A DNA stretch of 64,000 bases from Mortierella sp. BCC40632 (taxonomy: Eukaryota > Mortierellomycota > Mortierellomycetes > Mortierellales > Mortierellaceae), in NCBI GenBank assembly GCA_011634665.1, contig WAEK01000020.1, forward strand, positions 632,001 through 696,000, read 5' to 3'. The translations under genes were made by a program, and so were the position numbers. Position 1 is the stretch's first letter. Each line of letters begins with the position of its first letter. A model generated the notes under the pieces. The model saw only the letters and a program-made list of their open reading frames with translations. It was not told the DNA's origin and did no database searches. Below, piece after piece: positions 25,744 to 56,088 of this stretch.

Positions 25744-25959
25744 CTACAGAAGACTTGGTCCAGAAATCGCCCCTGTGACCGACTGATTCATGAGCTTCTC
25801 GAGGGCCTGTTCATATGTCATGGTGTTGGTGTGTGATCGAGACACGCCTGCTTCGACCGACGAACGCTGGATCTGAGTTGATGAGCGAGGCGAGTGAGCA
25901 GGAGTGGAGGAGGCCGAGTTGGTCTTGTTCTTGTTACCGAGACGCTTGAAGAAAGACAT
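25744..25959 (-). CDS. FFK small protein, SFFKR type, copy A (71 aa)
   Basis: Function unknown; a member of the small-protein family that fills 25.7-56.1 kb. The protein starts MSFFKRLGNKNKTNS: aromatic FF plus Lys/Arg, then an NK-rich basic stretch. STPAHSPRSST follows, with two proline-directed phospho-sites. The second half is MTYEQALEKLMNQ, a short probable helix, ending TGAISGPSLL. There is no signal peptide, cysteine or membrane helix. The first ATG after the TATA box (TATAAAA on the minus strand at 26117-26123) is the start; the extra frame upstream lacks an ATG. Divergent partner: TFFKT copy A, 876 bp away. All four SFFKR copies encode identical protein, which argues for selection or recent homogenisation. 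Confidence 0.8.
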   Translation of the reverse strand: MSFFKRLGNKNKTNSASSTPAHSPRSSTQIQRSSVEAGVSRSHTNTMTYEQALEKLMNQSVTGAISGPSLL

Positions 25960-26834
25960 GATGGAGAGTGGTTTGTTCTGGTGTAGTTGGTTCTTGATGA
26001 AGGGTTTGGTTGACAGGATGAGCAAGAGTGGTTCTTGGATCAGCTTTAGTTTGTTGAAGTAGAGTCGAGTTGTGAGTGATAAGAAGAGAGGGGAGAGAGT
26101 GAAGGAATGCGATGGGTTTTATAGAGATCTGAGTTGTTATTCAGGGTCCACAAAGCGTTCGACATAATTAGAGTGAGAGACCTCACTGTGTCCAAAGAAG
26201 GGATCCATGTGCATCCTGGTTGACTTGGCGCGCCACAAGATGGACAGTGCGAAGAACGGCCAATGGACAGATTGGAGCAACACTTTGACCCGCAGTTGGA
26301 TTCGCTGGGTTTTTCTCCGCAAAGGTGAGAGCAGAAGACCCGCAGCACCCGCAGCCACGCCGCTTGCCTTGGCGGGGGACAACCTTAATTGACTTATTAT
26401 TCCATAAATCCCGCTGAAGACAAGGTTAGACATGGTTACTCGATTCGGCAGCGAGTACACTTCCTCTCATTTCCATAGAAGAGAACAGACATGACATAGT
26501 GTGTTGCACAGAGAAGAAGCATACAATGAGCGAACACCGCCTTCCTCTTTCTTGTCGACCGACCTTGGCAGAGCCAGTCCCAGTGCCGAAAATGTGCCGA
26601 GCTTGCCGAGCTTGCCAAAAACAAACACAAGTCGGAAGTCGGAGGGTCTACTCGCTGTCCGAGTCTATTTACCATCCGTTGCCACCTTCAATACTCGAGT
26701 ATAAATACCTCTCCTCCTCCCCTTCTCTCTCTGGCTCCACATCAACTAAGCTACTCTCTCCAGTTCAAGAACAAGCCTCGGCCATCACAAACACAATCAA
26801 ACACTCAAACCTCGCCACTCTCACTCCTACAACA
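25960..26834. promoter_or_regulatory. Bidirectional promoter of module A
   Basis: A minus-strand TATAAAA (26117-26123) serves SFFKR, and a plus-strand TATAAATA (26700-26707) lies about 128 bp before the TFFKT start. The middle contains a conserved GC-rich block near 26335-26390 with repeated CCCGCAG and a GGCGGGGG element (a CreA/Mig1-like core), and further right a 9-bp tandem, GCCGAGCTT twice plus GCC (26596-26616). Spacing between the starts is 876 bp, as in module D, against about 922-925 bp in B and C. Leaders are CA/CT-rich and contain no upstream ATG. Confidence 0.7.
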
Positions 26835-27029
26835 ATGACTTTCTTCAAGACCTTCTCCAAGAACAAGACTGCCTCTGCTGCCTCTACTCCAGCTCAGACT
26901 CCTCGCTCTTCGATCCAGATGCAGCGACCAACTTCAGACAAGCAACAGACAACCATGACTCTTGACCAGGCACTCGAGATTGCCATGTCGCGATCAGTTG
27001 GCGGAATCTCAGGTCCTAGCCTTCTCTAA
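26835..27029 (+). CDS. FFK small protein, TFFKT type, copy A (64 aa)
   Basis: Function unknown. The layout parallels SFFKR: MTFFKTFSKNKTASAAS, then STPAQTPRSSIQMQ, a Gln/Thr-rich linker, the helix MTLDQALEIAMSR and the terminal SVGGISGPSLL. The ISGPSLL end is shared with SFFKR, so the two types are clearly paralogous. The start has a good context (acaacaATGac). The 3' flank contains AATAAATCATAA about 220 bp after the stop, a plausible poly(A) signal, conserved in copies B and D. Proteins of copies A, B and C are identical. The size and the strong TATA box suggest an abundant, inducible transcript (inference). Confidence 0.8.
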   Translation: MTFFKTFSKNKTASAASTPAQTPRSSIQMQRPTSDKQQTTMTLDQALEIAMSRSVGGISGPSLL

Positions 27030-27759
27030 ACCACTCACCAGCAATGGCCTCTCTTCTCCAACGGAGGTGTCTCTCTAATGGGTCATTCTCCTTCTCAGAG
27101 CAATTGTCTCCAGACTCATTTGCTTCGCATCGCATCCAATATCCAATCTCATGGATCATCGCATAGACTCTTATCCATACCCTCTTGACCACTCGCATTC
27201 TCGTGAGTGGGTTCTTGTATTTTTACTTTCAGCTCCTTTCATTTCTTGAATAAATCATAATTTCATCTTGAACTGTCTTGTCTACTTGAACTTGGACAAT
27301 GAGTGAGGTGAGCTGGTACTGAGAGTGTGGTCTAAGAAGAACACTCTGGAAACAAGCACTCGTCGATCACAAGCACTGATCGAGGCATCCCAACCATCTC
27401 GGTATACTCAATGCCTCTCAAATTCATGATTGTAGCTTGGTCAATCTGCAGCGAACATCGCTCGATCATTAAGGCGAAGGCTAGTGAAAGTATTTCTTGA
27501 CTGTGCTTGAGGTAACATGTACTTGTGATACTCGCCTGCTGTCACTGCCTCAGCCCTGACTTCGCGCCAAATCCCACCAATGTCCCTCTCAGAAGATGAA
27601 AAGGTCATGGTTCGTGACAATTGATCCGTCTTGATACCCTGTTTGTGGTCTGCTCCTTGGATAGAGCGTGCTTCGCATATTCTAGAGTCATTTCAACTGA
27701 CTTCTGAAGATAGCTCGTTCTCTCAGTTGCTCCACCTAGCAAAGTAGCTATAGGGACTA
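27030..27759. other. 3' flank of TFFKT A and unique spacer
   Basis: The first 300 bp are the conserved TFFKT 3' flank. From about 27340 to 27760 the sequence has no recognised counterpart in the other modules and no convincing frame. Confidence 0.5.
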
Positions 27760-54118: not shown

Positions 54119-54119
54119 C

Positions 54120-54660
54120 CCCCTCAGAGCGTCCCCCCTTCACGTTCTGCACTCAGTGGCAGACCATGCTCTGAGTTTCTCACAAACTCTGCCACTGTTC
54201 CCCAGAAAATGAGAGAACAAGTATAGGGGGAATTCCATGCTGGCCAAGGCTGTTCCATCGACCGTTTCGATTTCCATTCTGCCAGAAATACACTCCAGCA
54301 CTTCGGCTTCCGCCACAAGCCAATGGGGGACCACGGGCAAAACGATACCCGACAACTTCTAGAGTAGGAGAGAGGCGAATAAACACTCGGGCGTCCATTC
54401 ATGTTAGAGTATATCCAAGCCATGGCGTCCTCAACCCATCTTGTTCCATTCAGCTTTCAGTCAGTATGACTACTAGTCTTGATGTGGCACTTGAATGCGA
54501 GATCAAGAGGCAGAAGAGGAAGCACGAATATGGCCAGCCTCTGTTCGTAGGAAGACTTTAACACCCCGCGGATTTGCAGCAGTGCCGCAAAACAAGGAGG
54601 AACTTTGCACGTTGTGGGCAGCAAGTTCAGGGGAGATGTACTGTAGACTGTTTGTGATAG
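54120..54660. pseudogene. Shared non-family segment, possible decayed gene (right copy)
   Basis: Counterpart of 27760-28400. The plus-strand frame here starts MTTSLDVALECEI (about 54467) as in the left copy's minus strand, then loses frame after an indel and stops early. Fragments of the left copy's later sequence (GGAGGAACTTTGCAC, AGGGGAGATGTACTG) remain recognisable out of frame. This copy looks degenerate. Confidence 0.35.
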
Positions 54661-55866
54661 GTGAACCTCGAGCTGTCTGGCCCAGGCAGAGCGACCGAGA
54701 TGAATGGTTCGTCTCATCGGATAGAAATTGAGGCGGAGATTCGTTTGATTTCCCAGGAAGACAAGGGGCACAGACACTCAAAACAGCGAGCGGAGGGAGG
54801 GCTAAAAGTGGCCAACTCCACGCTCTCTCTTCATCTGACCACGACTATAAGCGACTTCCCGGGACTGGGGGAAACCATTTGAGTGTCTCTCAGCATTGGG
54901 GTACTTGAGGGTGAGGAATAGAGGTGTGTTGGCCAGAGAAAACTCCGTCAAATTGATTCTCGTTGACAATGCAAAAAGCGAGCTAACGCCGACCCTGAAC
55001 CTGACCGATAGCCTATTTACTACTCGCTGGGCCACGACGAGTAGGTCAACCAGTTCCATTGAATACATTGAGCTTTACCAATACCAACATATTCCTGGCA
55101 TTCGTGGCAGGTCATCAGATCAGCGTGTTAAACCGTACTCTTGAATCTTTTTTATTTGGACAGATAGCTCTGTTGGAGGCTACTAGTTTCCTTTAGCCTG
55201 TCCACGCTCGGAGAAGGCTTTAAGTACATTCGAGCAAGACTCAGTACTTTCTTTTGTGAGACTGAAAGAGCTGCATCCTTTAGACAGGACCCAATTTGCG
55301 TAATCCATCTTGCGAGATTATCGCATCCAACGCGGTTCTTATAAAGGCGGATGGCTCAAAACCTATCCGCATGGTGACTCGGCCACGGTCAAGAGCAAGA
55401 GCTGAGATTGCCACTAGACCGTGTCGCTCATTTCTCAGTCTGACCCAGTTCTGCCAGTCCTTTTGATTGATAGCCACATCTTTTTTTTTTCTTTGTTTTT
55501 TTTCCTCCGCTCCTCCCTCCTGCTTTTCGCCTCCTCTTTTGGGCATATCTGCATTTCCTCATCTAGATCCCGCACGGTTCAGCATTAACCCCGTAGGCGG
55601 AGGATGAGATGGCCAAGGAGGCAGGGCGTTCAGAAGTCAACGTGGACGTGCTCTAATAGCTAACGCTTTGCACGCCATCTCTGACCGTTAGAGAGTTATC
55701 CCGCTACCGCCTAAACTCCTTAAATAGGCCATTATAAAAGGCTCCTGTTCACCACCCCATTCTCTTCTTTTGACCCTTTTCTCTATACTGAGCTAGCAAA
55801 CCCCTAACATCTAATCCCAACGCCAAGATTCTTTTGCTCGGCCCACTCCAAGCCAATTCTCTAACC
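54661..55866. other. Unique spacer and promoter of the TFFKI gene
   Basis: 1.2 kb without a convincing gene. The end has TATAAAAG at 55733-55740, 127 bp before the next start codon, and a CCCCGTAGGCGG block near 55590-55601. Confidence 0.5.
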
Positions 55867-56088
55867 ATGACTTTCTTCAAGATTTCGTCCGCTGTCAAAA
55901 AGAACAAGACAGCCTCCAACCCAAACACGCCTTTGGCTACTCCTCGAGCATCTGTTCACATCACGGATTCTGAGCTGATCGGATTGGATCTCGAAAAGGT
56001 TCCACTCTTTCCTAACCAAGCCTTGGAAACCATTTCCTCAAAGTCCAACATTGGTCATATGCAAGCAATGTCCATGGCTAGAATGTAG
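55867..56088 (+). CDS. FFK small protein, TFFKI type (73 aa)
   Basis: Starts MTFFKISSAVKKNKTASNPN, with NTPLATPRASVH in the phospho-site block. The C-terminal half is different: a longer linker with ELIGLDLEKVPLFP, then NQALETISSKSNIG, which aligns with the QALE helix, and a Met-rich end MQAMSMARM. TATAAAAG at 55733-55740. It is the rightmost family member seen and has no second copy. Confidence 0.75.
   Translation: MTFFKISSAVKKNKTASNPNTPLATPRASVHITDSELIGLDLEKVPLFPNQALETISSKSNIGHMQAMSMARM

What the first reader, a model, noticed from the sequence alone, without database searches (positions are those of the whole stretch)
25744..56088. Dense cluster of at least 15 tiny FFK proteins, a probable undescribed gene family
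Seen: 15 intronless frames of 60-76 codons (TFFKT x4, SFFKR x4, AFFKS x2, GFLK x2, PLLK, TLSK, TFFKI). They share one plan: M-x-[FL]-[FL]-K; a basic NK-rich stretch; one or two S/T-P sites with TPRSS or SPRSS; a variable linker; and a short helix of the form [LM]-[ST]-x-[DEQ]-[QE]-[AV]. Between distant paralogues the start, the RSS block and the helix are kept while linkers differ, which indicates selection on protein. Inference: cytosolic, possibly membrane-peripheral (FF plus basic start) phospho-regulated peptides. I know no described family with this plan.
Basis: partly seen in the sequence, partly recalled or inferred. Interest (0 to 1): 0.92.

Follow-up and report, generated by a model that had tools for sequence, protein, structure and literature searches.

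The report
Mortierella-wide family of tiny phosphoproteins
A soil fungus carries a cluster of real, very small genes from a family found across its relatives and not described so far as we could find; most share four evenly spaced phosphorylation-type sites, so they may act as small phospho-switches inside the cell.

Summary
In detail: all 15 frames exist, against a mean of 0.1 in 30 random windows. They are seven protein types multiplied by local duplication; TLSK is probably decaying, and TLSK and the GFLK pair fit the family profile only weakly. Relatives: 135 proteins at E<=1e-3 and 264 at E<=0.1 with a wider profile (120 listed each; 162 distinct read); all listed hits bearing an organism name are Mortierellaceae. 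This genome holds 16 more frames on two contigs. Third-codon-position excess in 9 of 9 chosen pairs and dN/dS 0.10-0.43 in eight diverged pairs indicate selection on protein.
New here: the core is a four-spaced Ser/Thr ladder, S-xxx-[ST]P-xx-[ST]P-R-x-S, in 162 of 162 homologues read and 27 of 31 own frames. Best reading: cytosolic disordered peptides with a basic FFK anchor, a primed GSK3-type relay (perhaps also a Cdc4-type degron) and a short C-terminal helix. The family is shown; phosphorylation, kinase and outcome are inferred. A PxxxPR SH3 ligand fits the same residues equally often. No curated family reached its cut-off for eight window proteins; our paper searches found no description.

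The parts
25744..25959 (-). SFFKR, 71 aa, copy 1
   Evidence: E 5.8e-18
26118..26123 (-). TATA box of SFFKR copy 1 (164 bp before the ATG)
26700..26705 (+). TATA box of TFFKT copy 1 (135 bp before the ATG)
26835..27029 (+). TFFKT, 64 aa, copy 1
   Evidence: E 9.4e-24
28720..28929 (+). AFFKS, 69 aa, copy 1
   Evidence: subfamily with other genera
29371..29586 (-). SFFKR, copy 2
30511..30705 (+). TFFKT, copy 2
32497..32727 (-). GFLK, 76 aa; lacks the ladder core; weak profile match
   Evidence: (E 0.99)
33650..33874 (+). PLLK, 74 aa; ladder kept (S, T, S, S)
   Evidence: (E 8.2e-10)
34189..34383 (-). TFFKT, copy 3 (inverted unit)
35305..35520 (+). SFFKR, copy 3 (inverted unit)
48193..48375 (-). 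TLSK, 60 aa; ladder lost, no TATA match, probably a decaying copy
   Evidence: (E 0.028)
49689..49910 (+). GFLK, 73 aa; lacks the ladder core; no relative found outside this genome
   Evidence: (E 0.058)
51754..51948 (-). TFFKT, copy 4 (inverted unit; one residue differs)
52820..53035 (+). SFFKR, copy 4 (inverted unit)
53476..53685 (-). AFFKS, copy 2
55867..56088 (+). TFFKI, 73 aa, GHMQAL subfamily; paralogue of C1:2562199 (L050:2199-2411)

Best explanation
These are genes of a Mortierellaceae family of small (about 60-76 aa), mostly disordered, cytosolic proteins. SHOWN from sequence: the family, selection on the protein, clustering, the rigid core. INFERRED: (a) the start M-x-[FLI]-F-K plus the KNK stretch is a weak membrane or protein anchor; (b) the core S14-xxx-[ST]18-P-xx-[ST]22-P-R-x-S26-hydrophobic is a primed relay: an Arg-directed kinase of the PKA type phosphorylates S26, then a GSK3-type kinase, which reads S/T-xxx-pS/T, works back over T22, T18 and S14; (c) the charged ladder switches the protein, by weakening the basic anchor and/or by making a Cdc4-type diphospho-degron (pT-P-x-Q-pT); (d) the capped C-terminal helix binds a partner, and variable linkers and tails make the subfamilies differ. 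Local duplication and gene conversion set copy number.
For: Homologues: 135 at E<=1e-3, 264 at E<=0.1, 120 listed each. Ladder in 162 of 162 listed homologues and 27 of 31 own frames. In 145 distinct cores S/T stands at -8 and -4 in 99% (these two offsets were not fixed by the pattern used to collect the cores; 0, +1, +2 and +4 partly were), while S/T at -5 (67%), +3 (80%) and -2 (21%) is free. Core length is constant apart from rare +4, +3 and +1 insertions that keep the rungs, while the linker before it (0-9) and after it (6-20) varies. dN/dS 0.10-0.43 in eight diverged pairs; third positions lead in 9 of 9 pairs. TATA box 98-200 bp upstream in 16 of 18. The GSK3 rule S/T-xxx-pS/T and the yeast GSK3 Mck1 acting on Cdc6 TPTTS with SCF-Cdc4: PMC3516531, passages. 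GSK3-like kinase exons at two places of this genome (86% over 36 residues, 79% over 38). One helix 43-53, the rest without structure, low confidence.
Against: No phosphorylation, expression or localisation data. Given five fixed S/T positions in 20, a four-step run of step 4 has chance 0.8%, of any step 5.6%, so the spacing alone is not decisive. Other fixed residues are not explained by the ladder: S/T at -10 (96%), S at -15 (86%), A at -7 and -6, Q at -1. The degron part is a partial match: known Fbw7 sites are [TS]PPx[TS]P after hydrophobic residues (PMC8955265, passages), here A or S stands at P+2, A at P-2, and C-terminal basic residues, which weaken Cdc4 binding (PMC5216119, passages), follow. 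Four of 31 own frames lack the ladder (GFLK x2, TLSK, C1:2534290). Homologues were collected by shared words and a profile in which the core weighs most, so ladder-less relatives would be missed.
Confidence: 0.4

Rival explanations
1. The core is an SH3 ligand. P19-xxx-P23-R24 is exactly the PxxxPR motif bound by CIN85-type SH3 domains; the peptides would be adaptors or competitors in endocytosis or actin patches, and phosphorylation of T22 would switch binding off.
For: PxxxPR is in 162 of 162 listed homologues; the motif and its SH3 partner are documented in human proteins (PMC2833206, passages).
Against: It explains P, P and R but not the S/T at -8, -4, 0 and +4, each 99% in 145 cores (0 and +4 partly fixed by the collecting pattern). 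No fungal PxxxPR reader was looked for.
Confidence: 0.2
2. A membrane electrostatic switch like MARCKS: FFK and KNK hold the protein to a membrane (for example lipid droplets of these oil-rich fungi) and phosphates release it. The kinase need not be a relay.
For: N-terminal part carries +2 to +5 in 19 of 20 representatives; F at position 4 and K at 5 are nearly fixed in the 158 listed proteins with this start (155 and 156).
Against: Charge is small, the region lacks a predicted amphipathic helix, and the C-terminal helix is only weakly amphipathic.
Confidence: 0.2
3. The frames are chance or dead ORFs multiplied with a segmental duplication.
For: Four near-identical copies of one unit; TLSK looks decayed; one frame at C1:1826608-1826769 lacks an ATG at the usual place.
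Against: Homologues with the same plan in many genera, dN/dS below 1, third-position excess, TATA boxes at a regular distance.
Confidence: 0.02
4. Secreted or processed peptides (pheromone, antimicrobial peptide or effector).
For: Small, basic and clustered.
Against: No hydrophobic leader and no C-terminal CaaX in the 15 window proteins (by eye); no predictor was run.
Confidence: 0.04

Closest known systems
'Hypothetical protein' records of Mortierellaceae (Mortierella, Podila, Linnemannia, Lunasporangiospora, Haplosporangium, Entomortierella, Actinomortierella, Dissophora, Gamsiella, Gryganskiella, Lobosporangium, Modicella)
   Same: Same start, ladder core, helix and length; the same family.
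   Different: No name or function in the entries seen; some public models fuse two units (15 of 162 listed carry two ladders).
Cdc6 TPTTS site of yeast: GSK3-type kinase Mck1, then SCF-Cdc4 (PMC3516531, passages)
   Same: T-P-x-x-[ST] with a primed +4 site.
   Different: There one site in a large protein; here a four-step ladder in a stand-alone peptide, with no experiment.
PxxxPR ligands of CIN85 SH3 domains (PMC2833206, passages)
   Same: The same P-xxx-P-R.
   Different: No S/T ladder is part of that motif; fungal reader unknown.
MARCKS (recalled)
   Same: Basic and aromatic stretch near phosphorylatable residues.
   Different: In MARCKS the sites lie within the basic stretch (recalled); here beside it. 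No sequence relation was tested.

Membership tests
Mortierellaceae FFK family defined here | Significant profile match | tested here: met
   12 of 15 window frames at E 8.2e-10 or better; TLSK 0.028 and GFLK 0.058 and 0.99 do not pass at 0.01.
Mortierellaceae FFK family defined here | Four-spaced S/T ladder | tested here: met
   12 of 15 window frames and 27 of 31 own frames; not met in GFLK x2, TLSK and C1:2534290.
GSK3-type primed substrate | S/T-xxx-S/T spacing | tested here: met
   162 of 162 listed homologues; rule from PMC3516531.
GSK3-type primed substrate | Phosphorylated by a GSK3 kinase after priming | not testable with these tools
   No phosphoproteome at hand; kinase exons exist in the genome.
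Cdc4/Fbw7 phosphodegron | P0 and P+4 phosphosites with Pro at P+1 | tested here: met
   T18-P-x-Q-T22.
Cdc4/Fbw7 phosphodegron | Hydrophobic residues before P0, usually Pro at P+2, few basic residues behind | tested here: not met
   A at -2, mostly S/T/N at -1, A or S at P+2, R at P+6, set.
PxxxPR SH3 ligand | PxxxPR sequence | tested here: met
   162 of 162 listed homologues.
PxxxPR SH3 ligand | Binding to an SH3 domain | not testable with these tools
   -
Pfam families | Score above curated cut-off | tested here: not met
   Eight window proteins, best TAD2 at 18.5 bits against 31; 54 members, at most 1 matches any model at E 0.01.
TAL effector repeats (hit in the PDB search) | A matched stretch that passes on its own | tested here: not met
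   0 stretches; a 17-residue helix match summed over many repeats.
MARCKS-type electrostatic switch | Reversible membrane binding through the basic-aromatic stretch | not testable with these tools
   -

The most novel reading that the evidence does not exclude
A whole fungal family carries free-standing phospho-relay peptides: stand-alone readouts, about 65 residues long, of coupled Arg-directed (PKA-like) and GSK3-like kinase activity that act as dose-tuned switches or as competing degrons for SCF-Cdc4, kept in old clusters and homogenised by gene conversion.
Probability: 0.2. Interest if true: 0.75.

Novelty: new variant of a known kind. Interest (0 to 1): 0.52.

Why it matters
Mortierellaceae are very common soil fungi and some are grown for oils, yet this conserved multigene family appears only as 'hypothetical protein' in the records seen. 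A fixed four-spaced S/T ladder in a protein of about 65 residues would be a very small natural model of serial phosphorylation, easy to synthesise and test.

Tried and rejected
Pheromone precursor: no CaaX in the 15 window proteins. TAL-like repeat: artefact of summed repeats. Heat-shock control suggested by the Hsp70-like neighbour: no excess of heat-shock elements in 18 upstreams (GAAnnTTC 1 against 1.5 expected, TTCnnGAA 2 against 2.2, triple sites 0); AGGGG 22 against 16.5 was judged weak. GFLK relatives elsewhere: no protein shares three 5-residue words, which says little about distant kin. Fold searches were not run because both models are poor (pTM 0.24 and 0.21); the second model gave three low-confidence helices for the GHMQAL subfamily and was not used. 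Members outside Mortierellaceae: of 135 and 264 hits only the best 120 were shown each time, so the weakest 15 and 144 were not seen, and hits without an organism name could not be placed. NCBIfam: at most 1 of 54 members matches any model, best E 0.0027. Codon usage hints at C/G-ending bias in TFFKT and two C1 members, but numbers per protein are too small; the RPS19 row there is out of frame and ignored. In one search the spacing classes 10 and 12 are one spacing counted from two anchors, and 14, 15 (P0069, P0085) and 23 are anchor artefacts. Papers: searches were seen as listings only; (motif strings) found one unrelated paper on FACT and MCM; passages were read in PMC3516531, PMC5954166, PMC2833206, PMC8955265 and PMC5216119, no whole paper.
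Full report
WHAT IS THERE. All 15 frames are at the stated places. The window is C20:632001-696000 of a 49.9 Mb genome in 62 contigs. The closest named relatives are partial Lunasporangiospora selenospora proteins, 78% and 81% identical to TFFKT, so this is very probably a Mortierellaceae fungus (inference). Thirty first-order Markov windows gave a mean of 0.1 frames of the loose form and none of the strict form, against 15 and 12 observed.

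HOW THE CLUSTER AROSE. One divergent pair, SFFKR and TFFKT, about 0.9 kb apart, is present four times, two of them inverted. Seven of the 14 neighbouring pairs are divergent (permutation p 0.0015), but the copies are not independent, so this is descriptive only. The copies are mosaics: copies 1 and 3 differ at 0 of 411 coding but at 48 of 874 aligned intergenic positions; copies 2 and 3 differ at 4 of 411 coding but at 2 of 921 intergenic positions. Gene conversion or unequal exchange explains this best. Part of the contig is a paralogue of C1:2.50-2.57 Mb, which shares an Hsp70-like frame, a 389 aa frame, a match to the 1340 aa frame, a TFFKI gene and RPS19.

HOW BIG THE FAMILY IS. A profile of 68 homologues finds 31 frames in the DNA that was fetched: 15 in the window, 2 at C20:848-852 kb, 8 at C1:1.825-1.841 Mb (one without an ATG at the usual place) and 6 at C1:2.506-2.562 Mb. 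Three of the 31 (both GFLK and TLSK) are weak matches and are counted on plan and place. The count covers the fetched regions only; the genome-wide search with TFFKT gave 29 places at E<=10, all in these regions, and with GFLK three places, one of them (C8, E 0.06) not accepted. Outside this genome 135 proteins pass E 1e-3 with the first profile and 264 pass E 0.1 with the second; 162 different ones were listed and read. The genera named in those lists all stand under Mortierellaceae in the NCBI taxonomy. A tree of 141 rows on 68 columns is weakly resolved, but three subfamilies with both own and foreign members have support: GHMQAL (32 rows, 100/99), NFFKK (7 rows, 99/93) and AFFKS (8 rows, 99/89). 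So these subfamilies are probably older than the genera.

SELECTION AND EXPRESSION SIGNS. NG86 dN/dS in eight chosen diverged pairs of own members: TFFKT and C20:852 kb 0.25, SFFKR and TFFKT 0.23, AFFKS and C20:848 kb 0.43, C1:1825 kb and C1:2506 kb 0.11, C1:1828 kb and C1:2555 kb 0.14, C1:2534 and 2535 kb 0.18, the TFFKI pair 0.33, the GFLK pair 0.10 with saturated dS. Among the other pairs printed, finite values reach 0.69 and pairs with AFFKS are the highest; several have saturated dS, and distant pairs rest on uncertain alignment. The near-identical AFFKS pair (0.64) has too few changes to count. Third codon positions carry the most differences in 9 of 9 chosen pairs. A TATA box lies 98-200 bp before the ATG in 16 of the 18 upstreams examined (18 hits, one of them counted on both strands and one at -9; 5.9 expected); the exceptions are TLSK and C1:2534290. 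No transcript data were available.

THE CORE. In TFFKT numbering it reads S14-xxx-T18-P-xx-T22-P-R-x-S26-(M/V/I/L). All 162 listed homologues have it, as do 27 of 31 own frames. In 145 distinct cores S/T stands at -8 and -4 in 99%; at 0 and +4 also in 99%, but there the collecting pattern left little freedom. S/T between the rungs is free at -5, -2 and +3, while A at -7 and -6 and Q at -1 are also conserved and have no explanation here. Insertions are rare: +4 in Mortierella alpina (P0017, P0038, P0088, P0100) and in P0126, adding a rung; +3 in P0114 and +1 in C1:2506573, both before the rungs, which are kept; the linkers on both sides vary freely. The form is that read by GSK3, S/T-xxx-pS/T (PMC3516531, passages), with R-x-S-hydrophobic as a possible priming site for an Arg-directed kinase (recalled specificity). 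The overlapping pT-P-x-Q-pT resembles Cdc4/Fbw7 diphospho-degrons but lacks the hydrophobic flank and the second proline and has an Arg behind (passages). The prolines and R also make PxxxPR, an SH3 ligand (passages), in 162 of 162. The chance of a four-rung run of step 4 among five fixed positions of 20 is 0.8%, of any step 5.6%.

REST OF THE PROTEIN. The N-terminal part carries +2 to +5 in 19 of 20 representatives. AlphaFold2 gives one helix, 43-53, for TFFKT (mean pLDDT 66, pTM 0.24). The GHMQAL subfamily keeps K57, G61, H62, M63, A65 and R70 at 90% or more and Q64 in all 26 aligned members.

VERDICT. A real, old, lineage-restricted family without a described relative in what was searched. 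The phospho-relay is the best mechanism but unproven; SH3 binding is the main rival. It is rated a new variant of a known kind because small disordered phospho-regulated proteins and four-spaced ladders are known, while this stand-alone family is unnamed in the records seen. The odds are mine and rest on sequence alone.

Noticed in passing
36509-58256 and C1:2537428-2564795 (L047-L050): Paralogous blocks: the Hsp70-like frame is 90% identical between them (493 aa), other shared frames only 33-42%, RPS19 pieces 97-100%; the high Hsp70-like identity suggests conversion or strong constraint.
   Followed up: partly
43784-47806 (+): A 1340 aa open frame without a Pfam match; one partial relative (33%) in this genome, inside a 1218 aa open frame of the paralogous block on C1.
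   Followed up: partly
32497-32727 and 49689-49910: The GFLK pair keeps the start and a PLLK-like helix but no ladder; no relative was found outside this genome. A weak match to p53 transactivation domain 2 is below cut-off.
   Followed up: partly
L050:2199-2411 and window 55867-56088: The GHMQAL subfamily ends in an almost invariant tail, GHMQA-x-x-x-A/S-R, of unknown role.
   Followed up: partly
C1:1826608-1826769 (L041:6608-6769): A family frame with an intact core whose start has no ATG at the usual place.
   Followed up: no
13799-14590, 23074-25176, 57015-58106, 61283-62653, 63126-63731: Neighbouring ordinary genes: GAPDH, TB2/DP1/HVA22, ribosomal protein S19e, an MFS transporter and a CCCH zinc-finger protein.
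   Followed up: no
P0001-P0006, P0008, P0010, P0040, P0062, P0121-P0123, P0125, P0126: 15 of 162 listed public models carry two ladders in a row: fused neighbours or true double proteins.
   Followed up: no
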